A DNA stretch of 64,000 nt from Planctomycetaceae bacterium (GTDB lineage: Bacteria > Planctomycetota > Planctomycetia > Planctomycetales > Planctomycetaceae), in contig JANSXP010000012.1 of NCBI GenBank assembly GCA_024742875.1, positions 62,001 through 126,000 on the forward strand, written 5' to 3'. Made by a program: the position numbers and the translations under genes. This document shows, piece after piece, positions 5,991 through 63,999 of this stretch (the first letter of the stretch is position 1; every line of letters begins with the position of its first letter). Under the pieces are notes generated by a model. The model worked only from the letters and a program-made list of their open reading frames with translations, was not told the DNA's origin and did not search any database.

Positions 5991-6871
5991 CGCAGCTGCC
6001 CTTTGTAAAAATGCAGGGCGCCGGCAACGATTACATTTTCCTGGATGGTTTCCGCTCGGCACTGCCGGCCGATCCGGGCATTCTTGCCCGCGATATCAGT
6101 GATCGTCATACGGGCGTTGGCAGCGACGGTCTGGTCACCATCGAACGTCCGACCGATGACGACTGCGACGCCGTGATGCGCATGTGGAACGCGGACGGCA
6201 GTCAGGGACTGATGTGTGGCAACGCCCTGCGATGTGTGGCCCTGCGACTGCACACTCACCAGTCGTTTGAGCGGGTTCGCATTCGCACGGCGACTCGTGT
6301 CGTTACCGTGATCACGCTTCAGGTCGCAAAAGATGGTCAGTGCGGACAATTCTCAGCCGACCTGGGAACAGCGACGCCGGCAACGACGCTGGTTTGCCCG
6401 CGCAGCGAATTTCCACTGCTGTCCAGTCGGGACGATTTGCCGCAGCAACTGACTTTGCACAGCCTGAGCGTCGGCAATCCGCATGCCGTCGTTTTTACAG
6501 ACCATGCCACCGATGCCCTCGTGCAGGATTTCGGGGCGGCGATTGCCCGCTGGTCCCGCTTCCCGGAAGGCACCAATGTGGAGTGGGTGGAGACCGTCAA
6601 CAACCTTCACCTGCGCGTACGAGTATGGGAACGCGGTAGTGGTGAAACGCTGGCCTGCGGATCGGGCGCGTGTGCTGTTGTGGCGGCCGGCGTGCAACTC
6701 GGACAACTGCCCGTCAATCAGGACGTTACCGTTGAACTGCCGGGAGGCACGCTGCAGGTGCGTCAGGAGCCAAACGAGAGGCTGCAGCTGCGGGGACCAG
6801 CGACGGTGGTGTTTGAAGGCAGCTGGCCCCTGCGAGCGCAGAAGCCGCGCGATCAGTCAGCGATGCCGTAG
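5987..6871 (+). CDS. dapF: Diaminopimelate epimerase
   Basis: The enzyme interconverts LL- and meso-diaminopimelate, for lysine synthesis and for peptidoglycan. It is 294 residues, slightly longer than typical. The N-terminus [13 protein letters not shown] is characteristic. The two catalytic cysteines are visible in MCGNALRC and [16 protein letters not shown] and EGTNVEWV are the usual substrate-binding segments. It starts with GTG overlapping the preceding stop by four nt, and its 3' end overlaps the convergent glycosyltransferase by 19 nt. Planctomycetes were long debated as lacking peptidoglycan; an intact dapF fits a DAP-type pathway. Confidence 0.95.
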
Positions 6872-27177: not shown

Positions 27178-27253
<76 letters not shown>

Positions 27254-36079: not shown

Positions 36080-36136
36080 GGTTTTCAGATTTCAGTAGGT
36101 TGAATGGGCAGTGCGACAGCTGATCGGTGATTCCGC

Positions 36137-40242: not shown

Positions 40243-41399
40243 GAGGTCGCCTCCGTGCTGCCAGTGTCTCCCCCAGCCCGATCAGTCGGGTGGGGCGCGG
40301 TGCCCGAATGATCGCCAACTGGCGGCTGCTCGGATGGAGACGCGGGCGATGAGACAGATGGAGGCCCGGAGGAAAGCCCGGACGGTGACGCGGCCGGCAG
40401 CGGATCCGCATCGGGCGAAACCAGCGTGACGGCCGATGGGTCGACGATCTGATCGATATTCAGGTCAGCCGCCGTCAGGGTTTCGGCCGCATCATACCGA
40501 CCGGGATCCTGACTGAGCCGTTCTTCCTCCTGTCGCTTACGTGCCGCCGCATCTTCCGGGTCATCAGAAAACGTCTTCAGGACACGCTTGAGAAACAGCG
40601 TGTTAATCACGGGCGAATTGACAAAGTAGGTATTGGGATTTCGCGGATCCGGCGGCAGGTCTTCGTAACCCAGTCGTTCTCGCAGCGCTTCGGCCAGCGG
40701 ACGCGCGATTTCTTCGCGGCGGCCATCGGAAATCAGTCGGTCGCCTTCGAACAGTCGCTCAATGACGGCCAGGGTCCGTTCCGGCACGTGAAACCGCCCC
40801 GAACACTGGGAGCGGGGAATGATGTCGACACCATGCGTCACTCCCGGCGTGCGGGTGATGAACTCTCGCGACTCATCGACCACCATCGTGTCAAAAGCCA
40901 GATCGCCCAGACGCTGCATGCGTCGGTTGGCGGCCATTGTGACCAGCCCCGCGGTGTTCAGCGGGAATGGGGGCGTCTGTCCGCCCATGGCCAGAGGCAG
41001 CGAAGGAAAATACAGCAGGCCATCAGCCACCAGAAGCAGATTGCGACCGAACGCTTCAAACCAGCCTATGGGCGTTCCGTTAGTCCTGACAACGCGCAGA
41101 TTCTGCATCCGCTTGCCGGGTGTCTGGCCATTCCAGAACGCCTCAAAGCAGGCGCCGTAAAGCCACGACATAAAAAACCAGAGCATAAAGACGAGCCCGG
41201 TCGCTGTCCCAAAGGACAGTCCCCAGGCACCGAACAGCAGATACACCAGCACAATGACGATGATCGCGATCAGGATTTTCAACAGCAGATCGAGCACCCA
41301 CGACACGGCCCGCTTACCGGCTCCGGCAATGAGAAACTGAAAGTCGACGCCTTCCGGCGTTTCCACAGTGACTCGCGTGTCGACTTTTAGCTTGGACAT
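40239..41399 (-). CDS. RDD family membrane protein
   Basis: The protein is 386 residues and is first in the operon. The RDD domain has GAGKRAVSWVLDLLLKI (with the Arg of the RDD motif), a transmembrane hairpin (ILIAIIVIVLVYLLFGAWG; LVFMLWFFMSWLYGACFEAFWNG), QTPGKRMQNLRVV and GWFEAFGRNLLLVAD. The C-terminal ~180 residues are soluble and end in a Pro/Ser/Asp-rich tail. Role: probably a membrane partner in the MoxR system. Confidence 0.88.
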   Translation of the reverse strand: MSKLKVDTRVTVETPEGVDFQFLIAGAGKRAVSWVLDLLLKILIAIIVIVLVYLLFGAWGLSFGTATGLVFMLWFFMSWLYGACFEAFWNGQTPGKRMQNLRVVRTNGTPIGWFEAFGRNLLLVADGLLYFPSLPLAMGGQTPPFPLNTAGLVTMAANRRMQRLGDLAFDTMVVDESREFITRTPGVTHGVDIIPRSQCSGRFHVPERTLAVIERLFEGDRLISDGRREEIARPLAEALRERLGYEDLPPDPRNPNTYFVNSPVINTLFLKRVLKTFSDDPEDAAARKRQEEERLSQDPGRYDAAETLTAADLNIDQIVDPSAVTLVSPDADPLPAASPSGLSSGPPSVSSPASPSEQPPVGDHSGTAPHPTDRAGGDTGSTEATS

Positions 41400-46905: not shown

Positions 46906-48294
46906 TTAAGCGAAAATATCGTGCGCGACTTTGCCGCCCACGTTGGTCAGGCGGAAGTCGCGGCCCGAGTATCGATAGGTCAGTTTTTCATGATCCAGCC
47001 CCATCAGGTGCAGAATCGTGGCGTGCCAGTCGTGTGTATGCATGCGATTTTCTGACGCTTCGTAGCCCAGTTCATCGGTGGCCCCGTAGCTGAACCCACC
47101 CTTGACGCCGCCACCCGCCATCCACGTGGTGTAGCCCCGATTGTTGTGTCCACGACCACCACTGCCGTGCGGCGTGCGACCAAACTCGCCGGCAAAAATC
47201 ACAAGCGTGTCCTTCAGCAGATCACGCTGCTTGAGATCCGCCAGCAGTCCGGCGATGGGCTTGTCGACCGCCTGACACGATTCGGGCAGCAGTTCGGCCA
47301 GCCGGGCGTGGTGATCCCAGCCACTGGTCCCCACTTCCACAAACCGCACGCCGGCCTCCACCATCCGGCGAGCCAGCAGACACTGGGTACCAAAATCAGA
47401 CGTGGCCGCTTCACCGATGCCGTACATCGCTTTGGTGCGCTCGGTCTCCGCCGACAGATCCATCACTGTGGGCATCGAAGACTGCATGCGGAACGCCAGT
47501 TCATACGACTGCATGATGCCTTCCACCTGTGGCTGATGGCGCTCCTGTTTGAGGGTTGCCTGATTCAGCCGAGCCAGCAGATTCAGCTGCGTGCGCTGCG
47601 CGCTTTCGGACAGCGAGCTGTTGCTGATGTTCGGAATCGCCTCTGCGGAACCACCTGGGCCACCGGCACTGCGGCCGCCACGCCCGGCCCCCAGTCCGGC
47701 GTTGACCTGTGTGGCCTGATAGCGGGCCGGCAGGAACGAACTGCCAAAGCACACGCGTCCAGCCCGACCTCCCTGCCCCATCACCACAAAGCCAGGCAGG
47801 TCAGCATTCTCTGTGCCCAGCCCGTAAACACTCCAGGCTCCCAGAGACGGCCGCACAAACTGCGCCGACCCGGTGTGGGCCGCGCGTTCTGCCGTCGGGT
47901 GATTCGGCTGATCGCTGTGCATGCTGCGAATCAGACACAAATCGTCCGCGTGCCGGCTGACGTTGGGAAACAGATCGGAGATCCACAGACCACTGTTGCC
48001 CCGCTGACGAAACGGAGAGATCGGCCCCATCAGTCGACCACGTCCACCGCCCGATTTGCCGTCCGCTTCCGCCAGTTCGGGTTTGTAGTCGAACGTGTCC
48101 ACGTGCGACGGCGCGCCATTCATGAACAGCATGATGACCCGTTTGGCTCTGGCAGGAAAATGGGTCTCCCGGGGAGCCATGGGATTTTCCTGTCTGGCAT
48201 AGGCCAACGCCTCGCGCGTTGTCATCGCGGTAAACGCCAGTGAGCCCAAACTGGTCGAAATTGTCTGCACGGCCTGTCGACGGTTCATATTCAT
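46906..48294 (-). CDS. DUF1501 protein (sulfatase-like, exported)
   Basis: The protein is 462 residues. A Tat-like signal (MNRRQAVQTISTSLGSLAF) starts it. Family text follows: RAKRVIMLFMNGAPSHVDTFDYKPEL, RHADDLCLIRSMHSDQPNH, GTSGWDHHARL and FAGEFGRTP, which resemble the alkaline-phosphatase/sulfatase superfamily core. A Gly/Ser/Arg-rich insert (GAGRGGRSAGGPGGSAE) interrupts the middle. These proteins are paired with PSD1-type genes in planctomycetes, and the activity is not established. Confidence 0.92.
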   Translation of the reverse strand: MNMNRRQAVQTISTSLGSLAFTAMTTREALAYARQENPMAPRETHFPARAKRVIMLFMNGAPSHVDTFDYKPELAEADGKSGGGRGRLMGPISPFRQRGNSGLWISDLFPNVSRHADDLCLIRSMHSDQPNHPTAERAAHTGSAQFVRPSLGAWSVYGLGTENADLPGFVVMGQGGRAGRVCFGSSFLPARYQATQVNAGLGAGRGGRSAGGPGGSAEAIPNISNSSLSESAQRTQLNLLARLNQATLKQERHQPQVEGIMQSYELAFRMQSSMPTVMDLSAETERTKAMYGIGEAATSDFGTQCLLARRMVEAGVRFVEVGTSGWDHHARLAELLPESCQAVDKPIAGLLADLKQRDLLKDTLVIFAGEFGRTPHGSGGRGHNNRGYTTWMAGGGVKGGFSYGATDELGYEASENRMHTHDWHATILHLMGLDHEKLTYRYSGRDFRLTNVGGKVAHDIFA

Positions 48295-48369: not shown

Positions 48370-50946
48370 CTAGTTGAGAATGCGGAAGCGGGCACTGGCC
48401 ATCAGCGTCTGACAGAACACGGCCAGCGCCTGATCACTGGTGGCTGCCGCTGACACGCCACCGCGACCGCGACCGGCCGCCGTTCGACCACCGGGACCGC
48501 GACGTCCCCGCGGGCCGGCACCGCCCCGATTCATTCCCTGTTCGCGGTTCATGCCAGGATCGCGGCCTCCCGGACGACCACCACCCGCCATGCCGCGTCC
48601 CGCCGCCTGCCCTGCGCGTCCGGCACGCCCGCGTGGCCCGGCGGCCGGCTCAATGGAAATGGGCGTACCCTGAGCGGTGGGCACAAACTCGCGGAAGAAG
48701 GCCACACTGGCCTGCAGTTCCTCGCTGGTCGCCGGCCGACTGTACGCCCACAGAAAGGCCGTGCGAACCTGTTCCTCACGGCTGGAAGACTGCTGCTGCA
48801 GTGCGGCCGCCATAGCGGATGCCTGAGCCTGCACAAACTCACCATTCATCAGATACAGCGCCTGTGTGGGCACAATGGACTCATTGCGGCCCGTGCTGGA
48901 CATATTGGGATCCGGAAAATCAAACAGGTCGAGCGATTCAGGCAGGTTGTCGCGAACAACAGGCAGGTAAATCGAACGATAAGTGTTGTCCGGCAGATTC
49001 ACTGAGCCCGGACGACCACCCATTCCGGCCAGTACAGAGCCGCCCGGACGTTCCGCACTGAGCTGACCGGACAGTGCGAGCATGGCATCCCGCAGCACCT
49101 CGGCATCCACCTGTCGCGGATTGGCCCGCCACAGCAGCTTGTTGTCCGGATCTTCCTCATAGTTGGTCACCACATACTGGGAGCTGCGACGGTAGGTCTT
49201 TGACATCACAATCTCACGAATCATGGCCTTGACGTCCCAGTCCTTTGCCATGAACCGCACGGCCAGATGATCGAGCAGTTCCGGATGAGTGGGTGCAGTT
49301 CCTGACAGACCAAAGTTGCTGGTGGTTTCGACCAGCGGACTGCCCAGCAGATGCATCCACACCCGATTCATCATCACTCGCGCGGTCAGCGGGTTGTCTT
49401 TGGACGTGAGGGCTTCGGCCAGTTCCAGCCGACCGGACTCCCGACGACTGCTGACTGCAAAATCGAGATCGCCCAGCACCTGCACAAAACCACGCTGCAC
49501 TTCCTGAGCGGGCTTGTCCACTTCGCCACCCAGCAGAATGCTGGCATTGATCATCTCACCGTTTTCCTGCACACCCATGCCAAAGGCTTTGGCGGTGCCA
49601 TCCGGATTCAGCGACTGCAGCTGGCTGACAAGTCGGTTGCGAGAATTCCGGAGATTGCGACGGTCCTTGCCCGCCACACCCCGCATCTGCCGATCCAACT
49701 CATCAATCCGCTGCTGAATGCTGGCCATGGACTGAGTCCGGCCACCTCGCGCTGCCGGCGTGCCGCCATCCTGAACGGGCAGCAGCAGCAGGTCACTGGG
49801 CCGATGATTCTGGCCAATCCGCGTCGTGCCGTAATAGGTCTTCGTGCTGTAGAAGATCCCCGCCAGTCGATAGTAATCGTCCGTGGGAATGGGGTCGTAC
49901 TTGTGATCGTGGCAGCGAGCACAGGCGACCGTCAGACCCAGCACGGCCTGGGTTGTGGTGTCGATCTGCTCATCCACCATGTCCGACATAAACTTGCGGG
50001 GATTCTTCTCATCGTGGTGCTTCATCCCGATGGCCAGAAAGCCGGTGGCAATCAGATTGTTCTGCCATTGTTCATCCGTTTTGGCCGGCAGCAGGTCCCC
50101 GGCAATCTGCTCCTTAATGAACTGATCGTAGTGGGTGTCGTTGTTGAAAGCATCAATGACATAATCCCGATAACGCCATGCGTGGGGATAGCTGACATTG
50201 CGCGACCCTGATGACTCCGCATAGCGGGCCACATCCAGCCAGTGTCGTCCCCAGCGTTCACCAAACTGAGGCCGAGCCAGCAGCTCATCCACCTTGCTGG
50301 AGACGGCCGCATCCGGATTGACCTTGAAGGCGTCTGCAAAAACTTCAATCTCAGATGGCGTGGGAGGCAGCCCCACAATGTCAAAATTCAAACGTCGCAG
50401 CAGAGTGAAAGCGTCGGCCGCGCGAGTGGGCTGCAGGCCCGATTCTGCCAGCCCTGCGGCCACCAGACTGTCAATGTCCTGACCGGCCTGCGGCTGGGGC
50501 GGCTGAAAAGCCCAGTGCGAACGCCCCTGCTCAATATCGTCTTTGGTGATTTTGGTTTTGAATTCCAGCGTCTCGCGAACGCGCGGGTCAGGCGCTCCCA
50601 TGTCGATCCATGTTTTGAATTTGTCAATCACTGATGCAGGCATCTGCTGACTGGGCGGCATTTCGTAGCCCTCCCAGGTGATGGCTTCCCACAGCAGGCT
50701 GTCCGCATGGTTGCCGGGAACGATGGCTGGTCCGCTGTCGCCTCCCTGCATCAGTCCCTCGCGCGTATCCACCAGCAGCCCCGCGCGACTGTCACCCGCA
50801 TCAACGGAGTGGCAGTCGTAGCAGTATTTGACCAAAGCGGGGCGAATGTGTGTTTCAAAATACTTCAGCTGCTCGGCCGAGTATTCCTGTCCGCGTGCCG
50901 TCACGGTCAGGGTGATCAGCAGCAGAAAAAGGGTCGCCTGTTTCAT
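48370..50946 (-). CDS. PSD1 cytochrome-c-like protein with DUF1549 and DUF1553
   Basis: The protein is 858 residues with a signal peptide (MKQATLFLLLITLTVTARG). A c-type heme motif CYDCH (about 42-46) opens the PSD1 domain. DUF1549 follows (LLRRLNFDIVGLPPTP, RWGRHWLDVARYAESSGS) and DUF1553 (NPLTARVMMNRVWMHLLGSPLVETTSNFGLSGTAPTHPELLDHLAVRF). Near the C-terminus, residues ~768-830 are a Gly/Arg/Pro-rich stretch before the normal end VFCQTLMASARFRILN. It is probably a periplasmic electron-transfer or degradation protein. It precedes DUF1501 by 75 nt. Confidence 0.94.
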   Translation of the reverse strand: MKQATLFLLLITLTVTARGQEYSAEQLKYFETHIRPALVKYCYDCHSVDAGDSRAGLLVDTREGLMQGGDSGPAIVPGNHADSLLWEAITWEGYEMPPSQQMPASVIDKFKTWIDMGAPDPRVRETLEFKTKITKDDIEQGRSHWAFQPPQPQAGQDIDSLVAAGLAESGLQPTRAADAFTLLRRLNFDIVGLPPTPSEIEVFADAFKVNPDAAVSSKVDELLARPQFGERWGRHWLDVARYAESSGSRNVSYPHAWRYRDYVIDAFNNDTHYDQFIKEQIAGDLLPAKTDEQWQNNLIATGFLAIGMKHHDEKNPRKFMSDMVDEQIDTTTQAVLGLTVACARCHDHKYDPIPTDDYYRLAGIFYSTKTYYGTTRIGQNHRPSDLLLLPVQDGGTPAARGGRTQSMASIQQRIDELDRQMRGVAGKDRRNLRNSRNRLVSQLQSLNPDGTAKAFGMGVQENGEMINASILLGGEVDKPAQEVQRGFVQVLGDLDFAVSSRRESGRLELAEALTSKDNPLTARVMMNRVWMHLLGSPLVETTSNFGLSGTAPTHPELLDHLAVRFMAKDWDVKAMIREIVMSKTYRRSSQYVVTNYEEDPDNKLLWRANPRQVDAEVLRDAMLALSGQLSAERPGGSVLAGMGGRPGSVNLPDNTYRSIYLPVVRDNLPESLDLFDFPDPNMSSTGRNESIVPTQALYLMNGEFVQAQASAMAAALQQQSSSREEQVRTAFLWAYSRPATSEELQASVAFFREFVPTAQGTPISIEPAAGPRGRAGRAGQAAGRGMAGGGRPGGRDPGMNREQGMNRGGAGPRGRRGPGGRTAAGRGRGGVSAAATSDQALAVFCQTLMASARFRILN

Positions 50947-51093: not shown

Positions 51094-52566
51094 TCAGCGT
51101 TCCGGCTCGTCCGCTTCCACAATGACGCGGACCAGGTCAGACGACCGTCCCGGTGAAACAAAGCTGACTGTTAGCGTGCGGCGATCCTCACTGAGCGTGA
51201 TGCGATCTCCAAAGTCGTCGCCCGTTAAATCCAGTTGGCGACGCTGCTGACGCTCGCCAGCCGGCCGTCGGGAGAACCGACGGCTGCTGGCAAACAGTTC
51301 TTCATGCAAAACAATCAGGCCGGCAATCGGCCGATCAAACGTGATGGATCCCTCCACGCGTCCGGCGCGCCGCGGCCGCGACTGCGACCGAGGCATGTAG
51401 TGCAGTACATAGCTGCGAATCCGCTGTTCCGGTGATAGTGTGATGGGCGTTAGCTGTTGAACCCGCGAGTAGTCTCCGGGTGCCGAAATATTTACGTCCA
51501 GTGGCTGGACCAGATCAACCGCCCGCCCCTCGGCCGCCACAAACACGTGTCGGTCGCTGTGCACGAATCGAATCTGCTTGGGCCAGGGTGGCACAAAGCG
51601 AAACACGTCACTGGAGCCGGTAATTCCCGAAGCAACCGGCCACAGCCTTTCGAAGCGATCCACGTCAAACTGCGTGTCACTGATGGACTGGTCTGCGCTG
51701 ATTTTGACCGACTGTCCTTCGGTCAGCAGGCGTTTTTCTGTGGAGTCCAGCGCGGCCACTTCCACTTCTCCATCAAAGACGGACACGCTGGAGAAACCTG
51801 ATTCCCGCAAATCGATGCCAAACGACGTGCCCAGATCCACCACCTCGGCGGTCGGCGTGGCAACCGTGAATCCTTCGGCGCCCGCTGGCACGGTGGCGGC
51901 CAGCACGCCGGACACCAGACGGGTGCTGCCGGGTTTCACCAGTTCATATTCGGCCGGACCTTCCAGAGTGACTTCCACACCGTCGTCAAACACAAGACGC
52001 AGCACGCCAGACTGAAAAACAATCGTCTGACTGTCCAGACGTGTCCCCGCATCAAATGCCTGGTCCGACCAGACCACGTCGCTGGCCTGCGCCACCACAG
52101 CAAATCCCAGGGGAGCCTTTGGCGGTGAGCCAATGCCACCTGACGGCGTTTGCCCGACGGGCCACAGCACTCGCACGACCATCAGCACGCAGGCGGCGAC
52201 GGCCGTCAGTAAAGCCGCTCGTCGACCGGGCCGGTTGAGCGCTGCGTTTGATGAAGCAGCCTTGTTTCCTCTTTGCCGATCGGATGGCTTACGCCCCGCC
52301 TCATGCGGTTCAGCTGCAAAGTCTCCTGACTGGGCTGCCGGGTCCGCCGCCGGGCTGGCGGGGGAAGAGAGTGGCTTCAAATCGGTAAGCGTCGGATCAG
52401 TCGCCAGCACGGCGTGCAGATCAACGAGCGTCAAATATTCGTCCCGCGCCGCTTCACTGGCACGCAGGATGTTCGTGAGTTCGTCCAGTTCTGCCGGCCC
52501 GGCCGTTTCATCCAGCACAGCATTTGTCAGTGTCCGCAGGCGAACAGAATCGTGGTTGTTCGTCAT
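51094..52566 (-). CDS. FecR-type membrane anti-sigma/regulator
   Basis: The protein is 490 residues. The cytoplasmic N-terminus (RLRTLTNAVLDETAGPAELDELTNILRAS) resembles FecR sigma-binding parts. One transmembrane segment (ALLTAVAACVLMVVRVLWPV, about 133-152) precedes a FecR domain (RLDSQTIVFQSGVLRLVFDDGVEVTLEGPAEYELV, LTEGQSVKISADQ). A further C-terminal domain follows. It overlaps the sigma gene by 4 nt and should hold that sigma factor at the membrane. Confidence 0.88.
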   Translation of the reverse strand: MTNNHDSVRLRTLTNAVLDETAGPAELDELTNILRASEAARDEYLTLVDLHAVLATDPTLTDLKPLSSPASPAADPAAQSGDFAAEPHEAGRKPSDRQRGNKAASSNAALNRPGRRAALLTAVAACVLMVVRVLWPVGQTPSGGIGSPPKAPLGFAVVAQASDVVWSDQAFDAGTRLDSQTIVFQSGVLRLVFDDGVEVTLEGPAEYELVKPGSTRLVSGVLAATVPAGAEGFTVATPTAEVVDLGTSFGIDLRESGFSSVSVFDGEVEVAALDSTEKRLLTEGQSVKISADQSISDTQFDVDRFERLWPVASGITGSSDVFRFVPPWPKQIRFVHSDRHVFVAAEGRAVDLVQPLDVNISAPGDYSRVQQLTPITLSPEQRIRSYVLHYMPRSQSRPRRAGRVEGSITFDRPIAGLIVLHEELFASSRRFSRRPAGERQQRRQLDLTGDDFGDRITLSEDRRTLTVSFVSPGRSSDLVRVIVEADEPER

Positions 52567-53096
52567 GACGAAGCCTCCACACGGGAGAGCTTGCCATCAA
52601 TGCATTCCATCAGAGCCGATCGCAGTCGCTGCAGCGACTTATACAGCGCCTCGGTCGAACGTCCGACACGCTGTGAGATGTCTTCAATAGACGTGCGTTC
52701 AAAATAGTAGTCCCGCACCAGCTGACGATTTTCTGTCGGGAGATGTTCCAGGCAGTCCCGCAGAGGTTCGACACGGCGATCCAGCTGCGAAGTCAGTTGC
52801 TCGCGGCGGGACAACAGCAGCGACGCCACATCGTCGTCGAGAAAGCCCGCCCAGCGACCCTGCGTCCGCAGGTGCTGTTTCGCCTTGTTGGCGGCAAAGC
52901 GACACGCCCACGGCACAAACGGCAGCGCGGGATCGTAGTCGGCGATTCGACTCCACAACGCGACGGCGGTCTCCTGCAGGATCTCCTGGGCATCCTGGGG
53001 GTGGGGCACGATCGCCATCACGTACCGCAGGATCTCCCGCTCGCTTTGCAGCAGCAGACGCAGAAAGTCTTCCTGTGGGAGTTGTGGCGGATTCAA
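52563..53096 (-). CDS. ECF sigma factor (planctomycete FecR-linked type)
   Basis: The protein is 177 residues from a TTG at 53096 with AGGG six nt upstream. Region 2 (ILRYVMAIVPHPQDAQEILQETAVALWSRI, FVPWACRFAANKAKQHLR) and region 4 (LPTENRQLVRDYYFERTSIEDISQRVGRSTEALYKSLQRLRSALMECI) are clear. It starts the operon sigma - FecR - PSD1 - DUF1501 (the last two 148 and 75 nt apart), the standard planctomycete order. Confidence 0.92.
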   Translation of the reverse strand: MNPPQLPQEDFLRLLLQSEREILRYVMAIVPHPQDAQEILQETAVALWSRIADYDPALPFVPWACRFAANKAKQHLRTQGRWAGFLDDDVASLLLSRREQLTSQLDRRVEPLRDCLEHLPTENRQLVRDYYFERTSIEDISQRVGRSTEALYKSLQRLRSALMECIDGKLSRVEASS

Positions 53097-53601: not shown

Positions 53602-56600
53602 ATGACAGAAACGGTGCAATCCTGCCCAGACGACAATGTACTGCAGGGTTTTCTGAACGAATCCGGTACGGCTGACGACCAGCAGTTCGTCCATGACCAC
53701 ATCGACGCCTGCCCGCGCTGCGTGGCTCGGCTGGAACAACTGGCCGGAAAGCCCCGCTGGCAACAGCTGGTCCCGCACGGCCACGCCCTCGTTGATACGG
53801 ACACACGACACGCCACCGATGACGGGCGGGCGACAGCAGAGCGTGCCGAACCTCTCACGATTGAAGGCTACACGATTGTTGATGAACTGGGCCGCGGTGG
53901 CATGGGGGTCGTGTATCGCGCGGTGCATCATCGCCTCAAACGCGACGTGGCGCTAAAGGTGCTGACTGCCTCTGCGGCCGTCAATCCGGAGCGGTGGCTG
54001 CGTTTTCAGACGGAAGCCCAGGCCATTGCCCGACTGCAGCATGTTGGGATTGTGCAGGTCTTCGACTCAGGTGAGTCCCACCGCACTCCTTTTGTCGCCA
54101 TGGAGATCGCCAGCGACGGATCTTTGGCTGATCAGCTTAGTGGCATCCCGGTCGAGCCTGCACGGTCGGCCGGGATTCTGCGACAGCTGGCTCTGGCTGT
54201 GGCCCATGCGCACGATCGAGACGTGCTGCATCGCGACATCAAACCCACCAACATTCTGAATGCCGACGGGCAGTTCAAACTGGCCGACTTCGGACTGGCC
54301 AAGATCACCGATGACACCATCAGCCTGACAGAAACCGAAGACATTATCGGTACACCGGTCTACATGGCGCCCGAACAGTCGGCCGGTCAGCGGTCTCAGA
54401 TTGGACGGGCCACCGATATTCATGCTCTGGGAGTCGTGCTTTACGAAATGCTGTGTGGCACGGTGCCTTACCGCGGCTCTTCGGCCGTGGAAACGCTGCG
54501 ACTGATCGTCGAAAAAGAGCCCGTACGCCCTCGCCAGCATGTGCCCTCCGTGCCCAGAGATCTGGAGACCATCTGCCTGAAATGCCTGGAGAAGGATGTT
54601 GGACAGCGTTACGGCACGGCGGAAGAACTGGCCGACGATCTGCAGCGGTTTCTGGACGGCCGCCCCATTCTCGCGCAGCCGGCCAGCTCTTTTTCCCGGG
54701 TCGTGAAGTGGGCACGAAGACAGCCTCTGGCCGCCACTCTGGTCTCGGCGGTTCTGATGATTGCCGTAGCACTGGTGGCCGTGTGGATTAACTTCACGGC
54801 GGAAGTGACTTCCCTGAATACCGAGCTAACGTCCCGCAACAGTGACCTGAATCAAACCAACGAGCAGCTTCGAGAGCAAACCCGACTGGCCGACGAGAAA
54901 GCATTTCTGGCCAGCAGTGTCAGTACGTTTCTGCGGAACGATTTGCTCAGCCAGGTGTCTGCGGAGGCCCAGTTTGACTGGCTGGCCTCCATCGGCATGT
55001 CCGTCTCCAGCTACAAACGCGACCCCACTGTGCGTGATGTGCTGCAGCGTGTCGAAGGACGACTGGAAGCCGACACCTTTGACGAACATCCGCGGGTCAA
55101 AGGGCAGCTGTACCTGACCGTGGGCAACAGTTACCACAGCCTCGGTCGATACAGGGACGCCATTCGGCTGCTGCAGCGGGCACAGGACATTCTTCACGAG
55201 CACCCGCAGCCCAAAGACGCAGATCTGCTTGCATGTCAACGTCATCTGGCCATGAGTCTGACGGCCGAGGAAGACTACCAGCAGGCCCGGACGGTCCTGA
55301 CAGCGGCTCACGAAATGGCCGTGCGGGACTTTGGAACAGACAGTTATGAAGCCATGGTGACGCAGGTGGACCTGGCGGGGATCAACGGGCTGTTCGGCGA
55401 CAAACAGCAGGCCGTGACTTCGGGCACCGCAGCGCTTGAGGCTCTGGAAGCCCAGCTTGGTGAAGATCATCCGGCGGTGCTGAAAGCCGCCTCTTTGATG
55501 GGCGATCTTCTGCTCACTCTGGAGCAGTATGATGCCGCGCTGCCGCTGATGGAACGCGTGGCGCGTGTGGCCGAAGAACGCTTCGGCCCGCGACACCCGA
55601 CAACTCTGCAGGCCCGGCATCGACTGGCCGAAGCGTGTCATTACAACCTGCAGACAGATCGCTCGGCGATCCTGGTGCAGTCTGTCTGGGAAACGGCCGA
55701 GGACGTGTTTGGTCCAGAGCACCCGGTGACTCACGTCTATCAGCTGGCCGCCGTTCAGGGAGTCTCGCACGAACGTGATCTGCCCCGAGCGGTCACCCTG
55801 ACGGAGCAGTCCCACAAAGTCCTGACCGAGTTCTATCCAGTTGGACACCCGCTGGTCTGGAAAGCCGAAAAGCGACTCGCCGAGATGTACGCGGACGCCC
55901 ACCGCTATGAAGAGGCGCTGGCGGTTTCCAGCCGTCTGCTGCAGATGAGCCGGACGCACTTTGGAAAAGACTCCCGCAAAGCCTTTATTGCCGCGCTGAT
56001 GCAGGCACAGCACCTGTCACGAACAGGGGACCATGACGGTGCCCTGTCACGCCTGCGGGAACTGGAGCAGACACGCGATGCCGTTTCCCCATCCACTTCG
56101 CGCACCCTGATTGAAGTGCGTCGCGGAATTGGTCGGGCGCTGCATCAGTCAGGGCGGCTGGATGAGGCGCTGCAGGTGCTGAAGCAAAGCCATCAGGAGC
56201 ACCGGGACTTCTTCGGGGCGGACAGCATGGCCGCGTTCAACGCCGGAATTTCTGTGATGCTTGTGGTTCAGGCCAAACAGGATCACGAAGAGATGATCAC
56301 CATCACGCGGCAGATCCTCGATGACACGCGTGACACCTTTCCCGAAGAAGAACGCACTCTGCTTGTTGTTCGACAGGCGCTCGCGCACGCTCAGTCGTCA
56401 CTGTTGCGGTGGGACGAGGCCGAAGTCACGCTGGTGGAAACATCAGAAATCTATCTGCGGAAGTGGCCCGAAGATCCCAACGCGCATTTCTACCTGGCCA
56501 TGCTGGCGGCCTGCTATGTGCGTCAGGATCGGCTCGACAAAGGCGAACAGACGGCTTTGGCCGCGTGGGAAGGACTGCAGAAATATGGTCCCTCGCCGCC

Positions 56601-56940
56601 GACCCCCGTGCAGACCGGACGACTGCAGCAGTTGTGTCGCGTCCTGATCACCGTTTACGAGGCCAGGTCCGAAACGGAAAAACGTCAGCAGTGGCAGGAC
56701 ACGCTCGATCAACTCAGTGGAACACGGGCGTCGGACGCTAAAACGGCGGAACCCGACAAGCCGGATGAACAAACGAGCGACAACTCTGCAGAGTCTCCCG
56801 ATAAAGCGAGACCTGACTCAGAAGAAGGCGGATCGGGGCCGGGCGATTCGCCGGACACGGCGTCCTCGTCTCACGCGAATGCCCACGACGCAATCAGGGA
56901 CACTGCACGACGCGTCGTCGGTAATGACCATCGGACTTAA
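53602..56940 (+). CDS. Transmembrane Ser/Thr protein kinase with N-terminal ZAS-like motif and TPR domain
   Basis: The protein is 1112 residues from the ATG at 53602. The N-terminus has HIDACPRC (H33, C37, C40), the H-x3-C-x2-C pattern of zinc-binding anti-sigma domains. A complete kinase domain follows (residues ~90-355): GRGGMGVVYRA, VALKVL with the lysine, HRDIKPTNIL, DFGLAKI and GTPVYMAPEQ. One transmembrane segment (LAATLVSAVLMIAVALVAVWI) is followed by ~600 residues of tetratricopeptide-type repeats (LYLTVGNSYHSLGRYRDAIRLLQRAQ, FGPRHPTTLQARHRLAEA). The tail is acidic and disordered. The outside TPR part could sense a ligand or partner. An ECF sigma gene follows 170 nt later. Confidence 0.92.
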   Translation: MTETVQSCPDDNVLQGFLNESGTADDQQFVHDHIDACPRCVARLEQLAGKPRWQQLVPHGHALVDTDTRHATDDGRATAERAEPLTIEGYTIVDELGRGGMGVVYRAVHHRLKRDVALKVLTASAAVNPERWLRFQTEAQAIARLQHVGIVQVFDSGESHRTPFVAMEIASDGSLADQLSGIPVEPARSAGILRQLALAVAHAHDRDVLHRDIKPTNILNADGQFKLADFGLAKITDDTISLTETEDIIGTPVYMAPEQSAGQRSQIGRATDIHALGVVLYEMLCGTVPYRGSSAVETLRLIVEKEPVRPRQHVPSVPRDLETICLKCLEKDVGQRYGTAEELADDLQRFLDGRPILAQPASSFSRVVKWARRQPLAATLVSAVLMIAVALVAVWINFTAEVTSLNTELTSRNSDLNQTNEQLREQTRLADEKAFLASSVSTFLRNDLLSQVSAEAQFDWLASIGMSVSSYKRDPTVRDVLQRVEGRLEADTFDEHPRVKGQLYLTVGNSYHSLGRYRDAIRLLQRAQDILHEHPQPKDADLLACQRHLAMSLTAEEDYQQARTVLTAAHEMAVRDFGTDSYEAMVTQVDLAGINGLFGDKQQAVTSGTAALEALEAQLGEDHPAVLKAASLMGDLLLTLEQYDAALPLMERVARVAEERFGPRHPTTLQARHRLAEACHYNLQTDRSAILVQSVWETAEDVFGPEHPVTHVYQLAAVQGVSHERDLPRAVTLTEQSHKVLTEFYPVGHPLVWKAEKRLAEMYADAHRYEEALAVSSRLLQMSRTHFGKDSRKAFIAALMQAQHLSRTGDHDGALSRLRELEQTRDAVSPSTSRTLIEVRRGIGRALHQSGRLDEALQVLKQSHQEHRDFFGADSMAAFNAGISVMLVVQAKQDHEEMITITRQILDDTRDTFPEEERTLLVVRQALAHAQSSLLRWDEAEVTLVETSEIYLRKWPEDPNAHFYLAMLAACYVRQDRLDKGEQTALAAWEGLQKYGPSPPTPVQTGRLQQLCRVLITVYEARSETEKRQQWQDTLDQLSGTRASDAKTAEPDKPDEQTSDNSAESPDKARPDSEEGGSGPGDSPDTASSSHANAHDAIRDTARRVVGNDHRT

Positions 56941-57110
56941 CTGAGGGAGACAGGTCAGCTGAGCGGTACGCCCTAACCATCTGCCCTCACTATGGTTACA
57001 CTTGAGCGTTCACGGGGCGCGACGGCGAAATGGCGTGGACGGCCGTTTTTCTCTGGATTCGTGTCAGAATCACACGACGCCCTGAGTTTGACACCTCAGG
57101 AGACCAGTGC

Positions 57111-57701
57111 ATGACCGAATTCCCTGAAACACGAGCCACTCTGCTGGCCGGCGTCAAAGCCAGAGAAAACCGCGAAGCGTGGGAGGATTTTCTCCTGACC
57201 TATCGCCCGGTGATCTACCGCATGGCGCGTCGCCGGGGTCTGCAGGATGCCGACGCCCAGGACGCCGTGCAGAATATTCTGGTCCGGGTGTCCGCCGCGA
57301 TTGCCGACTACGAACCGCAACCGGGAACCAAATTTCGGCACTGGCTGCGTCGCGTCGCTCGCAACGCGATATTGTCCGCTTTGTCGCGGGGCCCCAAAGA
57401 TGCAGCAGTCGGCGGCACGGCGGCTGACGAACAACTGCAGCGACAACCAGAACAGGACGACGCCAGCCGGGAGCTGGCCCACGAGCATCGCCGGGAACAG
57501 TTTCATCGCGCGGCGGCGGTTGTGCGATCAGACGTCAACACAGAAACGTGGCAGGCCTTTGAGCTGACTGTCGTACAGGGGCTCAGCTGCGAGGACGCGG
57601 CAAAGACCATCGGCAAGAGTGTGGGCACGGTCTACGCCGCCCGCAGTCGCATCATCAAACGACTCCGCGAACAACTGGATCGCATGCAGGAACTCAACTG
57701 A
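57111..57701 (+). CDS. ECF sigma factor located between two kinases
   Basis: The protein is 196 residues. AGGAG lies eight nt before the ATG at 57111. Region 2 (AWEDFLLTYRPVIYRMARRRGLQDADAQDAVQNILVRVSAAIADYE, FRHWLRRVARNAILSALSR) and region 4 (WQAFELTVVQGLSCEDAAKTIGKSVGTVYAARSRIIKRLREQLDRM) are present. It has the features of the kinase-associated ECF groups described in planctomycetes. There is no separate anti-sigma gene next to it; the flanking kinases carry the zinc-type motif instead. The second kinase begins about 47 nt after its stop. Confidence 0.92.
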   Translation: MTEFPETRATLLAGVKARENREAWEDFLLTYRPVIYRMARRRGLQDADAQDAVQNILVRVSAAIADYEPQPGTKFRHWLRRVARNAILSALSRGPKDAAVGGTAADEQLQRQPEQDDASRELAHEHRREQFHRAAAVVRSDVNTETWQAFELTVVQGLSCEDAAKTIGKSVGTVYAARSRIIKRLREQLDRMQELN

Positions 57702-57748
57702 ACGGCCCTTTTTCCGGCCTCACCGATGATTGACCTGTGATCGGATTT

Positions 57749-60661
<2,913 letters not shown>

Positions 60662-60759: not shown

Positions 60760-62049
60760 CTACGCAAAGTCCAAACCGCTGATGCGGCCGGTGCCGGTGG
60801 CGAAGGAATCGGTTTCGATCCCCAGTCTCTGCAGCATGCTGACATACACGCACGACAGTGGCGTGTTGTGCTGGCGATCAAACACCAGATGCTGCCCGTG
60901 GCGAAAACCGCCGCCGGCCAGCAACACCGGCAGATTGGTGGTATCGTGCCGTCCCGCGTGCCCCAGGTTACTGCCCTGGAGCACCATCGTGCGGTCCAGC
61001 AGGGACGCTCCCTCTTCGGTTGCCGTTCGCAGGCCCTCCAGCAGGCGGCCCAGTTCGGCCATCTCCGCTTCCTCGACTGTGCGCAACTGCTCCCGTGACT
61101 GCTGCTGCTGGCTTTGATGAGTGAGCGCGTGGTGTGGCAGATCCACGCCGGGCAGATCGACCTTGGGATTGAACTGCTGCGTCACAAACACAGTCACCAG
61201 TCGCGTCGAGTCCGTCTCCAGAGCCAGTCGGGCCAGGTCGTACATGCTGCGCAGCCGCTTCACCAGCGCACCCGGATCACGCACGTCCTGCGGCGGCTTC
61301 AGTTTCACCTGAGGTTTGGGGCGACGTTCCCATTCTTCGCTGCTCGCCAGTCGCTGCTCCACATCTCGAACAGAAGAAAAGAACTGATCCAGCCGCGCCC
61401 GATCAGCGCCACCCACATCCCGGGACAGCGACTTAATCTGTCCGGCAAACGAGTCCATCAGGCTCTGGCCTTCACGCAGACGGCGAACCTGGGCGTCCAC
61501 CTCAGCCGCAGTTCCCTGCACAAACAACTGACGAAACACGCGCGATGGTCGTTCTTCGGAGGGAATGCGAACCCCGTCCCCGGTGTAAGACAGCGAACCA
61601 CCGCCGGGCCCCACACGCAGATTGAGCGTGGGGAACCGCGTCAGATGGCCAATCTGACGCGCGGCCAGCTGGTCCAGCGAAATGGAATTGCGAAATCCGG
61701 CGCTGCGAGGATGCGGCGCACCAGTCAGAAAGCACTTGTCCCCCTGATGGCCACCATCGACTTCGGGGTGAGAGACACCGCTGAACACAGTGAAATCATC
61801 TCGAAGCGACTTCAGCACCTGCAAGTGAGGCGAAAGTTCGTAATCGCGTCCGGACGAATGTGGGAAGAACTCCTCGGGCATAAATCCCAGGTCCACGTTC
61901 ACGGCCACCATCCGCCGCGGCACGTCTTGCATGGCAGCCGCCTGGCAGGCTGGCGTCATCGCGTCCAGCATCGGCAGAGCCACAGAGACGCCCGCAGCTC
62001 GCAGCACGGTGCGGCGGGGAAGACTCTTTTTTCTTAGCAGGTTCGGCAT
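60760..62049 (-). CDS. DUF1552 exported protein
   Basis: The protein is 429 residues. A Tat-like signal (PRRTVLRAAGVSVALPMLDAM) is followed by the DUF1552 core: RRMVAVNVDLGFMPEEFFP, DFTVFSGVSHPEVDGGHQGDKCFLTG, SLDQLAA, and the C-terminal segment MVLQGSNLGHAGRHDTTNLPVLLAGGGFRHGQHL. The family pairs with DUF1592-type cytochromes in planctomycetes and verrucomicrobia. It starts 36 nt after the neighbouring gene, so the two are one operon. The activity is unknown. Confidence 0.93.
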   Translation of the reverse strand: MPNLLRKKSLPRRTVLRAAGVSVALPMLDAMTPACQAAAMQDVPRRMVAVNVDLGFMPEEFFPHSSGRDYELSPHLQVLKSLRDDFTVFSGVSHPEVDGGHQGDKCFLTGAPHPRSAGFRNSISLDQLAARQIGHLTRFPTLNLRVGPGGGSLSYTGDGVRIPSEERPSRVFRQLFVQGTAAEVDAQVRRLREGQSLMDSFAGQIKSLSRDVGGADRARLDQFFSSVRDVEQRLASSEEWERRPKPQVKLKPPQDVRDPGALVKRLRSMYDLARLALETDSTRLVTVFVTQQFNPKVDLPGVDLPHHALTHQSQQQQSREQLRTVEEAEMAELGRLLEGLRTATEEGASLLDRTMVLQGSNLGHAGRHDTTNLPVLLAGGGFRHGQHLVFDRQHNTPLSCVYVSMLQRLGIETDSFATGTGRISGLDFA

Positions 62050-62085
62050 CAGCTCAGTTCCGTTTCCAATCCAGCGTCCCGCGCA

Positions 62086-63999
62086 TCACTTGCGGCGAAA
62101 CAACTCACTTTGCACGACAGCGTGAAGCATCGATCTGATGCCGTAGCTCTTTACGGCGAGCGACTCCATCATCTTGTCCACGCAGGCCTGATCGGCGAAA
62201 CCGACCGGCTCGCCGGTCGCATAGACAATCAATTGTTCGAGCAGATGACGAGCGATCTGTGGTTCCCGGCTTTTGAGTAGTTCACGGAACTCGCGTATGT
62301 CGGCAAACGTCCGACCGTCAGGCAGTTGCCCGGCTGACTCCACGGGCGGCCCCTGGCGATACCAGATCGGACGGCCATTGAGACGCCCCGGCACTCCCCT
62401 GTCCACCTTCGCCAGCGCGCGATAGTTGTCTCGCCAGGCGCCCATCACATCAAAACTCTCCAGCGCAAATCCGGGAGGATCGATCTTCTGATGACAGGAG
62501 GCACACGCCTCGAGAGATCGATGCGCGGCCAGTTGCTCGCGAACAGTGGTCGCCCCGCTGATATCCGGCTCAATGGCGGGCACCGAAGGAGGTGGCGGTG
62601 GCGGCGGATCACCCAGCAGACGACTGAGCACAAACGTGCCCCGCACCACCGGAGACGTGGTTGTGCCATTGGCCGTGATTTTCAGCAGACTGCCCTGTGT
62701 CAGCAGCCCACCCCGCACGCTGTCTGCCGGGATGGACACTCGACGAATGTGCGACCCCGACACGCCTTCGATGCCGTAGTTTTCTGCCAGCCGCTGATTA
62801 AGCATCAGAAAGTCTGAGTCAATGATGCTGCGTACGGGCAGATCATGACGAATCGTCTCAGCAAACCACGCCCGCGTTTCCTGGAGCATGGATTCGGTCA
62901 GAAGTTCGTTGTGTTCCGGATACAAATTGTCATCCGGCTCGGTGAGCGTGATATTTCGCAGATCGAGCCAGTCGTCCAGAAAGTGATTCACAAAGCGGGC
63001 GTTTTCAGGCGACTCCAGCAGTCGATTGGTGTGCAGGCGCAGGCTTTCCGGATCCTGCAACTGATTGGCGGCGGCCGCTTCCCGCAGGGCCCGGTCGGGT
63101 CCGGCATTGATGAGCAAACAGGACAATCGGGAAGCCATCGCCCAGGAATCCAGCTCTCCTGGTGATTCCTGCAACAGCAGAAACTCGGGCGACACCAAAA
63201 TGGCGCGGTAGCCGGCCAGCAGTGATTCCACAAAGGACTGCTTCTGCTGCAGACGACGACGAAACTGCTGCATGGGCACCACCAAATCACTGCCGCGGAT
63301 CGGCCGTCTCAAAGCCCGCACGGCAAAACGCCGCAGCAGTCTTTTGGCATCGGCTTCCGGAGTGTCCGTCTCGATGGTGTAGTGCCGCCCATTGGGCCGC
63401 TCGTTGGGCTGCTGGCTGGTCGCACGTCGCTGCATTGTTCCCAGCAGGCGGCGATGCCGCTCCGGTGGCCACTTCTGATCAGGCTCCGGCAGGGGACCTT
63501 CCATCTCCAGCCACTGCAGGCCAATGCCGTCGGAGGCAAACCCTGCGTATTTGGGATCCTCACGAAATGGAAAGTTAAAGCGTTCGTACTCAGTGGAAAT
63601 GGCCAGGTACTCCACTCGTTCCTCGGCGTTCAGCCACGCGGTCATCTCACTGGTCGTCGGTGTTCCCGTCAGGTCACAGCGGCCCAGCAGTCGGCCGGTT
63701 GGCGAGTAGAAGGCGACCGTCTGCGTGCGGTCACTGGGCTTGATCGTGCCGTACTCATTGCGCAGCGCCCAGCCGTGCATGCGAATTTTGTAGTAGCCGT
63801 CACGCGGCACAACAAAAGGCTTCACTGTCACGTTGTGGTTGAAGCGACTGTTCATGAAAGTGGCCACGCCGTCAAACTTTGGTGCCGGATCAATAATGCG
63901 ACCGGGGTCGCGTTTTTTGAAGTCCCCTTTGATCCGCTCAAACGTGGGGTCCACCTGCTGCCCCACCAGCGGAATGGCGACTCCCTGCTTCAGCTGCAC
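62086..63999 (-). CDS. DUF1592/DUF1588/DUF1585 cytochrome-c-type protein (start outside window)
   Basis: The frame runs out of the right edge, so about 637 C-terminal residues are seen. They show a DUF1595-type helical part (DAKRLLRRFAVRALRRP), DUF1592 (LLAGYRAILVSPEFLLLQE), DUF1588 (GGLLTQGSLLKITANGTTTSPVVRG and the heme-type CASCHQKIDPPGFALE), then DUF1585 (FRELLKSREPQIARHLLEQLIVYATGEPV). A run of Pro (GDPPPPPPPSVP) joins parts of DUF1588. The missing N-terminus should hold the DUF1587 and first heme parts. It is the first gene of an operon with DUF1552. Confidence 0.93.
   Translation of the reverse strand: MQLKQGVAIPLVGQQVDPTFERIKGDFKKRDPGRIIDPAPKFDGVATFMNSRFNHNVTVKPFVVPRDGYYKIRMHGWALRNEYGTIKPSDRTQTVAFYSPTGRLLGRCDLTGTPTTSEMTAWLNAEERVEYLAISTEYERFNFPFREDPKYAGFASDGIGLQWLEMEGPLPEPDQKWPPERHRRLLGTMQRRATSQQPNERPNGRHYTIETDTPEADAKRLLRRFAVRALRRPIRGSDLVVPMQQFRRRLQQKQSFVESLLAGYRAILVSPEFLLLQESPGELDSWAMASRLSCLLINAGPDRALREAAAANQLQDPESLRLHTNRLLESPENARFVNHFLDDWLDLRNITLTEPDDNLYPEHNELLTESMLQETRAWFAETIRHDLPVRSIIDSDFLMLNQRLAENYGIEGVSGSHIRRVSIPADSVRGGLLTQGSLLKITANGTTTSPVVRGTFVLSRLLGDPPPPPPPSVPAIEPDISGATTVREQLAAHRSLEACASCHQKIDPPGFALESFDVMGAWRDNYRALAKVDRGVPGRLNGRPIWYRQGPPVESAGQLPDGRTFADIREFRELLKSREPQIARHLLEQLIVYATGEPVGFADQACVDKMMESLAVKSYGIRSMLHAVVQSELFRRK

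What the first reader, a model, noticed from the sequence alone, without database searches (positions are those of the whole stretch)
53602..60661. Two kinases with anti-sigma-like zinc motifs flanking one ECF sigma factor
Both transmembrane Ser/Thr kinases open with H-x3-C-x2-C (H33/C37/C40 and H30/C34/C37), the signature of zinc-binding anti-sigma domains, and no separate anti-sigma gene accompanies the ECF factor between them. ECF factors next to kinases are described in planctomycetes. The inference is that the anti-sigma function is fused to the kinase, so phosphorylation or an outside signal (TPR repeats in one, TIGR03067-like domain in the other) frees the same sigma factor. Two sensors for one sigma would be a branched input.
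Basis: partly seen in the sequence, partly recalled or inferred. Interest (0 to 1): 0.75.

Follow-up and report, generated by a model that had tools for sequence, protein, structure and literature searches.

The report
Membrane kinases carrying built-in anti-sigma domains
In this planctomycete a membrane protein kinase carries, at its inner end, a zinc-binding domain of the kind that normally holds a gene-switching sigma factor inactive, and it is encoded right behind such a sigma factor; the pairing recurs across the group, whereas the second such kinase beside it probably belongs to a different sigma factor.

Summary
K1 (53602-56940) and K2 (57749-60661) are transmembrane Ser/Thr kinases opening with H-x3-C-x2-C, flanking one ECF sigma factor (57111-57701). 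The N-termini are class I zinc anti-sigma domains (ZAS): a profile of 44 finds solved anti-sigma factors (DdvA, RsiW, RslA). In this genome 23 of 106 kinase domains carry a ZAS; 19 of the 23 have an ECF directly upstream, against 28 of 83 others (p 3.5e-5). Of 163 distinct ECF loci, 138 are followed by a ZAS-kinase; three keep the ZAS without a kinase. AlphaFold of a linked ECF-ZAS chain gives pTM 0.78, the ECF alone 0.59. So ECF+K2 is best read as a sigma factor whose anti-sigma domain is fused to a sensor kinase. 'Two sensors, one sigma' is unlikely for K1: 1 of 48 relatives has a same-strand kinase upstream, with its own ECF, and K1 matches another ECF clade. How kinase activity frees sigma is inferred. 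The papers searched do not describe the fusion; the main ECF classification papers were not held.

The parts
53602..56940 (+). K1: ZAS - Hanks-type Ser/Thr kinase - transmembrane helix - TPR repeats; orphan ZAS-kinase
   Evidence: phylogeny
53623..53781 (+). K1 ZAS domain (residues about 8-60), H33 at 53698-53700, C37 at 53710-53712, C40 at 53719-53721, W53
   Evidence: ZAS profile E 2.5e-15, 9.6e-16 on the translated window; K1 is one of the 44 profile rows
53869..54630 (+). K1 kinase domain (residues 90-343)
   Evidence: Pkinase E 1.1e-49
54727..54783 (+). K1 transmembrane segment (residues 376-394)
   Evidence: hydropathy maximum 2.7
57111..57701 (+). ECF sigma factor, region 2.2 motif DAQD (residues 48-51)
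   Evidence: Sigma70_r2 E 2.9e-14; TIGR02937 E 3.4e-22
57749..60661 (+). K2: ZAS - Hanks-type Ser/Thr kinase - transmembrane helix - TIGR03067 domain; predicted anti-sigma partner of the ECF
57758..57994 (+). K2 ZAS domain, slice used in the profile (H30 at 57836-57838, C34 at 57848-57850, C37 at 57857-57859, W51)
   Evidence: alignment A5; ZAS profile E 1.8e-22; K2 is one of the 44 profile rows
58073..58825 (+). K2 kinase domain (residues 109-359)
   Evidence: Pkinase E 4.9e-48
58955..59011 (+). K2 transmembrane segment (residues 403-421)
   Evidence: hydropathy maximum 2.8
59744..60031 (+). K2 TIGR03067 domain (residues 666-761), on the far side of the membrane from the ZAS
   Evidence: E 7.7e-18, 64.7 bits, cut-off 40.15

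Best explanation
ECF + K2 is a two-gene sigma/anti-sigma module in which the anti-sigma factor is a membrane Ser/Thr kinase. The cytoplasmic N-terminal ZAS domain of K2 binds the ECF and keeps it from RNA polymerase. The outer C-terminal part (TIGR03067 domain) senses something; the kinase between them is switched, and (auto)phosphorylation of the ZAS, of the linker between ZAS and kinase, or of the ECF loosens the grip and frees the sigma factor. K1 has the same design, but its lineage evolved with another ECF clade; it is best read as an orphan whose partner, if any, is probably a clade-B ECF elsewhere in the genome (such as C4, C150 or C99:136484), not the ECF next to it. Shown: domain identity, fusion, gene linkage, conservation, phylogenetic fit. 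Predicted by model: the ECF-ZAS contact. Inferred: direction of the signal and the role of phosphorylation.
For: ZAS identity: the profile of 44 N-termini hits DdvA 4.9e-6, RsiW 5.3e-5, RslA 9.7e-5, a CHAT protein 1.1e-4, ChrR 0.085 among PDB chains; zf-HC2 at E 0.05 or better in 40 of 44; NCBIfam RsrA model in 36 of 44 and ChrR in 8 of 44. Linkage: 19 of 23 own ZAS-kinases have an ECF domain ending within 1 kb upstream of the kinase domain on the same strand, against 28 of 83 others. Relatives: of 170 ECF loci (one the window's own) 144 have a ZAS-kinase directly downstream, 4 divergently, 7 a ZAS without a kinase in the same ORF, 2 a kinase without detected ZAS, 8 neither, 5 end at the contig edge; seven loci are repeats, so 138 of 163 distinct. 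Phylum sample: of 30 loci from 294 genomes 22 have a ZAS-kinase downstream and 1 divergently. Coupling: ECF stop and kinase start can overlap as ATGA in 73 of 144 pairs and GTGA in 4 of 144. ZAS without kinase after the same ECF family: L044 (WD40), L230 (Secretin_N), L275 (rest unidentified). Model: ECF+ZAS pTM 0.78, mean pLDDT 84.1; ECF alone with the same 16 ECF rows 0.59 and 76.6. TM-scores (by target length) to ECFs bound by class I anti-sigma factors or RsbN rise by 0.05-0.11 (1or7_B 0.35 to 0.45, 8z6g_B 0.35 to 0.44, 4nqw_A 0.35 to 0.43), to RNAP-bound ECFs by -0.01 to 0.05 (9m9e_F 0.31 to 0.31, 6koo_F 0.30 to 0.35). The ECF keeps acidic residues at 48 and 51 (126 of 132 rows, the window ECF counted twice), so it is not inactive by itself in the way of ECF43. 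Catalytic motifs kept: HxDxKxxN 139 of 144, DFG 129 of 144. For K1.
Against: No binding was measured, and no interface scores or coordinates were available; only pTM and pLDDT. The modelled chain is an artificial read-through of a relative (L202), not the window pair, with a linker of about 20 residues that could force proximity; no unrelated tandem was run as a control. Among the 50 rows shown no Foldseek match exceeds TM 0.45, and ECFs bound by NepR (5uxx) gain only 0-0.02. The kinase domain tracks the ECF better (r 0.73) than the ZAS does (r 0.39; partial 0.30, 0 of 999 permutations reach it), so linkage could be driven by the kinase. Column-level coevolution is weak and mixed: the MI top-50 mean exceeds all 200 shuffles, but shuffles do not control for phylogeny, and the largest excess (sigma2 with ZAS helix 1, 10 against 1.7) is not the published helix1-sigma4 and helix4-sigma2 pattern. 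In the closest own paralogue (C44) the ZAS has lost His and Cys. Four of 23 ZAS-kinases have no directly upstream ECF. Mirror-tree ranks are imperfect (true ECF first in 7 of 19 by kinase, 8 of 19 by ZAS), and C13 and L293 look like partner switches, so K1's exclusion is not proof.
Confidence: 0.7

Rival explanations
1. One reading: K1 and K2 both hold and release the ECF between them, each answering its own outer signal.
For: Both carry an intact ZAS and lie on the same strand beside the ECF, with 170 bp between K1 and the ECF and no terminator-like or promoter-like site found in 56700-57800. K1's closest relative, own C4:2203, also sits in a cluster with one ECF and another ZAS-kinase.
Against: K1 position not conserved: 1 of 48 loci has a same-strand kinase upstream, with its own ECF; no kinase or ZAS match upstream of the 61% orthologue in the same genus. 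K1 kinase and ZAS fit a different ECF clade: the adjacent ECF ranks 17th and 18th of 19; trees.
Confidence: 0.15
2. Activation by phosphorylation of the sigma factor, as in EcfP/PknT and EcfK/PknS (ECF43): the kinase phosphorylates the ECF, and the ZAS only docks it.
For: ECF and kinase are linked and their distances match (r 0.73); reviews predict phosphorylation for ECF59, 61, 62 and 217 of planctomycetes (passages of PMC8999054). Thr7 of the ECF is invariant (120 of 120 rows with a residue there) and position 10 is Ser/Thr in 93%.
Against: The ECF keeps acidic residues of the DAED motif (126 of 132 rows), whose loss defines the ECF43 mode; ECFs paired with non-ZAS kinases keep it mostly too (18 of 28, 6 unaligned), so this point does not set the ZAS group apart. 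An inhibitory-type domain is kept even where the kinase is missing.
Confidence: 0.2
3. The ZAS is a zinc or redox sensor or dimerisation part of the kinase that no longer touches any sigma factor.
For: Orphan ZAS-kinases exist without a neighbouring ECF (C149, C152); zinc ligands serve redox sensing in some anti-sigma factors (PMC7406223 passages).
Against: ECF linkage of 19 of 23 and 138 of 163; ECF-ZAS model; C44 lost the zinc ligands but kept ECF linkage, so zinc sensing is not what is conserved there.
Confidence: 0.12

Closest known systems
Class I zinc anti-sigma factors (RsiW, RslA, RsrA, ChrR, DdvA)
   Same: Hx3Cx2C domain at the N-terminus, Trp soon after CxxC in many members here, gene directly behind the ECF gene, often membrane-bound
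   Different: Here the domain is followed by a Hanks-type Ser/Thr kinase before the membrane helix; I know of no kinase in the named ones (recalled)
STK-associated ECF groups of planctomycetes (ECF59, 61, 62, 217)
   Same: Planctomycete ECF encoded next to a Ser/Thr kinase, no separate anti-sigma gene (PMC8999054 passages)
   Different: There described as activated by phosphorylation; here the kinase itself carries an anti-sigma domain. Group membership not testable: profiles not on hand
EcfP/PknT and EcfK/PknS (ECF43)
   Same: ECF plus neighbouring Hanks kinase
   Different: ECF43 lost the DAED motif and is intrinsically inactive; this ECF keeps it. A word search of the PknS paper found no mention of zinc
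M. tuberculosis PknB acting on RshA/SigH and RseA/SigE
   Different: There kinase and anti-sigma factor are separate proteins; here they would be one
ECF48/52/53 with C-terminal zinc anti-sigma fusions, and a CHAT protein with a ZAS-like N-terminus (PDB 8rot)
   Same: Anti-sigma(-like) domain fused to another functional part (passages)
   Different: Fusion partner is the sigma factor itself or a CHAT domain, not a kinase

Membership tests
Class I zinc anti-sigma domain (ZAS) | Hx3Cx2C spanning helices 2-3 | tested here: met
   K1, K2; 141 of 144 relatives; lost in own C44 paralogue
Class I zinc anti-sigma domain (ZAS) | Sequence kinship with proven anti-sigma factors | tested here: met
   Profile against PDB, zf-HC2 40 of 44, RsrA model 36 of 44; K2 taken singly matches none
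Class I zinc anti-sigma domain (ZAS) | Helix 4 after CxxC (sigma2-binding) | tested here: inconclusive
   Trp within 22 residues after CxxC in 109 of 143; helix 258-268 in the model; no clear sigma2-helix 4 coupling excess (1 against 0.3)
Class I zinc anti-sigma domain (ZAS) | Encoded with its ECF | tested here: met
   K2. Not met for K1:
Class I zinc anti-sigma domain (ZAS) | Binds and inhibits the ECF | not testable with these tools
   Only indirect: pTM 0.78 against 0.59
Hanks-type Ser/Thr kinase | Catalytic motifs | tested here: met
   HRDIKPTN and DFG in K1, HRDIKPEN and DFG in K2; Pkinase
ECF43-type phosphorylation-activated ECF | Loss of the acidic DAED motif in region 2.2 | tested here: not met
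   DAQD in the window; acidic at both ends in 126 of 132 rows
ECF groups 59/61/62/217 | Match to the group profile | not tested
   Group models not seen in the libraries used; classification paper not held

The most novel reading that the evidence does not exclude
A class of anti-sigma kinases: single membrane proteins in which an outer sensor, a Ser/Thr kinase and a class I anti-sigma domain are one polypeptide, so that autophosphorylation directly sets sigma-factor release. About twenty paralogous pairs in one genome, plus orphan ZAS-kinases such as K1 that act on non-adjacent ECFs of their own clade, would form a cross-wired sigma network unlike one-to-one sigma/anti-sigma pairs.
Probability: 0.4. 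Interest if true: 0.78.

Novelty: new variant of a known kind. Interest (0 to 1): 0.62.

Why it matters
[quoted passage not shown] If the kinase is itself the anti-sigma factor, that reading needs revising for this large set, and the open question of how these ECFs are kept off becomes a simple binding and reporter test on a domain of about 65 residues. Relatives with the same arrangement occur in named strains (Rhodopirellula baltica L243, Neorhodopirellula pilleata L196, Stieleria sedimenti L191).

Tried and rejected
Contrast of region 2.2: I expected ECFs paired with non-ZAS kinases to lack DAED. They do not (18 of 28 acidic at both ends, 6 of the 28 not aligned there; ZAS-paired 18 of 19), so this does not separate two modes.

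Column-level coevolution was too weak and mixed to define an interface; with 113 non-redundant pairs, mean-field DCA had one coupling above the maximum of 20 shuffles.

A lost ECF remnant upstream of K1: none found by profile. The divergent ECF at 52563-53096 as K1's partner: it is of another group (TIGR02989) with its own FecR-domain neighbour; not supported, not excluded.

A conserved PTDD motif before the kinase as phospho-switch: 61 of 144 only. A TPR part in L275, seen by eye, was not confirmed by Pfam.

The first cross-tabulation had nine loci read in the wrong orientation; one search showed it and one search corrected it. Alignment A3 placed the ZAS-only rows wrongly and was replaced by A6. 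Dropped rows: two regex hits judged spurious (raw figures); 31 of 144 pairs removed as redundant or gappy for the statistics. The 'next 60' loci were taken in list order, leaving out own-genome hits and, by oversight, G003:C59.

Full report
Observation. K1 (1112 residues) and K2 (970 residues) each have a Pkinase domain, a strong hydrophobic segment and a C-terminal part of TPRs or TIGR03067. Both N-termini lie before the kinase and thus, by inference, on its cytoplasmic side of the membrane. The ECF has sigma regions 2 and 4 (Sigma70_r4_2 just under its cut-off in Pfam, the whole over the TIGR02937 cut-off). The window lies in an 8.18 Mb genome with 113 Pkinase and 120 sigma70-ECF matches. 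One genome placed by the tool in the same genus (G001) has a contig of 20,457 bases that carries the same ECF as L248, titled Fuerstiella sp., so the genus is probably Fuerstiella.

Is it an anti-sigma domain? Singly the two N-termini are weak (zf-HC2 E 0.03 for K1, nothing for K2). A profile of 44 such N-termini, 42 of them from the relatives described below (A5), finds solved anti-sigma factors: DdvA 4.9e-6, RsiW 5.3e-5, RslA 9.7e-5, then a CHAT-domain protein 1.1e-4, ChrR 0.085 and RsrA 0.91. Of these names, that chain 3hug_B is RslA is recalled (the table says 'probable conserved membrane protein'); the others stand in the table. Member by member, zf-HC2 matches 40 of 44 at E 0.05 or better, and NCBIfam anti-sigma models match up to 36 of 44. 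The signature Hx3Cx2C is the one used for zinc-binding class I anti-sigma domains in PMC7406223 (passages).

Genome-wide test. The 106 kinase domains of the genome (113 matches, seven pairs of pieces merged by hand) were taken out with their upstream DNA. The ZAS profile picks 23, with a clean gap. Of these 23, 19 have an ECF domain ending within 1 kb upstream of the kinase domain on the same strand; of the other 83, 28 do (Fisher p 3.5e-5; paralogues are not independent). By the bare motif it is 18 of 22 against 29 of 84 after dropping two hits by hand, 19 of 24 against 28 of 82 without dropping. The four exceptions are K1, C4:2203, C149:33495 and C152:13598. C149 and C152 have no ECF in the 13 and 15 kb fetched around them. 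At C4 an ECF (5996-6652) is followed by a ZAS-kinase (3289-6060) and then by a second one (730-3237), all on the minus strand.

Relatives. Searching with the ECF and looking at the neighbours gave: best locus in each of 30 genomes (one is the window), 27 ZAS-kinase downstream, 2 ZAS without kinase in the same ORF, 1 neither; 80 named genome contigs (the best 80 of 268 found), 71, 2, 2 neither and 5 at a contig end; next 60 loci by score (own genome and one hit left out), 46 downstream, 4 divergent, 3 ZAS only, 2 kinase without detected ZAS, 5 neither. Seven loci of the second set repeat the first, so 138 of 163 distinct loci have a ZAS-kinase downstream. Of the seven ZAS-only loci, four are fragments, cut contigs or frames broken by stops (L054, L208, L252, L277). 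The ZAS profile was built mostly from these loci, so the fairer figure is the motif: Hx3Cx2C in 141 of the 144, only Cx2C in 3. A wider sample of 294 genomes of the phylum gave 51 with an ECF match at 1e-25; of the 30 loci shown, 22 have a ZAS-kinase downstream (one is the window itself), 1 divergent, 2 a kinase without detected ZAS, 1 a kinase upstream whose N-terminus lies outside the fetched DNA, 4 neither; several of these genomes are also in the first set. ECF stop and kinase start can overlap as ATGA in 73 of 144 pairs; in the window they are 47 bp apart. Three neighbours have the ZAS but no kinase: L044, where a ZAS is joined to WD40 repeats where the kinase domain should be; L230, with a Secretin_N domain; and L275, rest unidentified. 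L044 comes from a draft genome and could be a decayed gene or an assembly join. That the ZAS persists without the kinase behind the same kind of ECF argues that it is the part that deals with the sigma factor.

Contact. A single chain of ECF, spacer and ZAS from L202 (stop codon read as a residue), with 6 such paired rows, 10 ECF rows and 60 ZAS rows, gave pTM 0.78 and mean pLDDT 84.1; five blocks of the ZAS reach 94-95. The same ECF alone, with the same 16 ECF rows, gave pTM 0.59 and pLDDT 76.6. If the ZAS floated free, pTM should fall, not rise. Among the 50 rows shown of each Foldseek search, TM-scores to ECFs bound by class I anti-sigma factors or RsbN go up by 0.05-0.11 on adding the ZAS, to RNAP-bound ECFs by -0.01 to 0.05, and to NepR-bound RpoE by 0-0.02. 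No match exceeds 0.45, no interface scores were available, and no unrelated tandem was modelled, so this is support and not proof.

Coevolution. In 113 non-redundant pairs, distance matrices correlate at 0.73 (ECF-kinase) and 0.39 (ECF-ZAS); the partial correlation ECF-ZAS given the kinase is 0.30 and no permutation of 999 reached it. The kinase thus tracks the ECF better than the fast-evolving ZAS does. Column-level analyses were weak and did not reproduce the published dual interface cleanly.

K1. Its best-scoring relative among the candidates scored in 58 genomes is C4:2203 of the same genome (42%); in a FastTree tree the two are sisters (local support 0.986) next to the kinase of L287. Most ECFs paired with that kinase group form, with C4, C150, C99:136484 and C101:9399, a clade with support 1.0 that excludes the window ECF; the ECFs of L293 and C13 are exceptions. 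The mirror-tree ranks agree: window ECF 17th of 19 (kinase) and 18th of 19 (ZAS) for K1, but 2nd and 1st for K2. The true partner was in the top three for 14 of 19 (kinase) and 12 of 19 (ZAS), so the method errs at times. Upstream of 48 relatives with at least 3.6 kb of DNA there is one same-strand kinase, and it follows its own ECF. In the 6 of 80 loci with more than one ZAS-kinase there are at least as many ECFs. I therefore reject the branched input for this locus as the likeliest reading; C4 remains a better place to look for it.

Mechanism. ECF region 2.2 keeps its acidic ends in 126 of 132 rows (the window ECF is there twice), so the ECF should be able to bind polymerase unless held; in ECF43 that motif is lost and phosphate replaces it (PMC8999054 passages). 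With an anti-sigma domain present and no other holder seen, inhibition by the ZAS is the simplest step; release on kinase activation is inferred, with the precedent that phosphorylation of separate anti-sigma factors by PknB frees sigma factors in M. tuberculosis (same passages). Zinc itself may be structural: the closest own paralogue C44 lost the ligands yet keeps the domain (profile E 4e-9) and the linkage.

Novelty. Nine literature searches were made. Of their listings I opened six papers, by word search for passages only (PMC8103513, PMC7406223, PMC11032199, PMC8999054, PMC13147305, PMC8567305); none of the listings or passages describes a kinase-fused anti-sigma domain. No paper of the library holds both 'zf-HC2' and 'pkinase'. 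The central papers (ECF reclassification of 2021, Jogler 2012, ECF evolution 2020; identifiers partly recalled) are not held, so prior description cannot be excluded. Both halves are known; the combination is a new variant.

Noticed in passing
51094-53096 (-): A second ECF (TIGR02989 type, 52563-53096) with a FecR-domain protein (51094-52566) behind it, divergent from K1, next to PSCyt1/PSCyt2/PSD1 (48370-50946) and DUF1501 (46906-48294) genes.
   Followed up: partly
L044, L230, L275 (loci of other planctomycetes): Behind the same kind of ECF, ZAS proteins without a kinase: joined to WD40 repeats (L044), to a Secretin_N domain (L230), to an unidentified part (L275).
   Followed up: partly
own genome, 28 further ECF-kinase pairs (e.g. 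L121, L126, L123, L030): 28 other kinases have an ECF directly upstream but no ZAS; several share a different N-terminal motif resembling EEY..xHP (by eye).
   Followed up: no
L099 (own genome C20:49309-50598): ECF and kinase matches share one open frame of 532 residues, apparently a natural sigma-kinase fusion without ZAS.
   Followed up: no
L002 (own genome C44): Closest own paralogue of the ECF-K2 pair; the ZAS has lost His and both Cys but still fits the profile.
   Followed up: partly
ECF 57111-57701, residues 7 and 10: Thr7 is invariant (120 of 120 rows with a residue there) and position 10 is Ser/Thr in 93% of ECF rows: possible phosphosites or a helix cap.
   Followed up: no
33762-41399 (-): A run of DUF58/VWA, DUF4350, SpoIIM and RDD membrane-protein genes; the AT skew of 0.28 at 38-40 kb falls in this densely coded minus-strand run.
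   Followed up: partly
60760-63999 (-): DUF1552 and PSD4/PSCyt3/PSD2/PSD5 genes convergent with K2.
   Followed up: no
L346 (own genome C99:136484-139870, beyond the window end): Another ECF with a ZAS-kinase about 10 kb past the window end; by phylogeny one of the candidate partners of K1.
   Followed up: partly
27178-27252 (-): A tRNA gene, the only Rfam match in the window at gathering thresholds.
   Followed up: no
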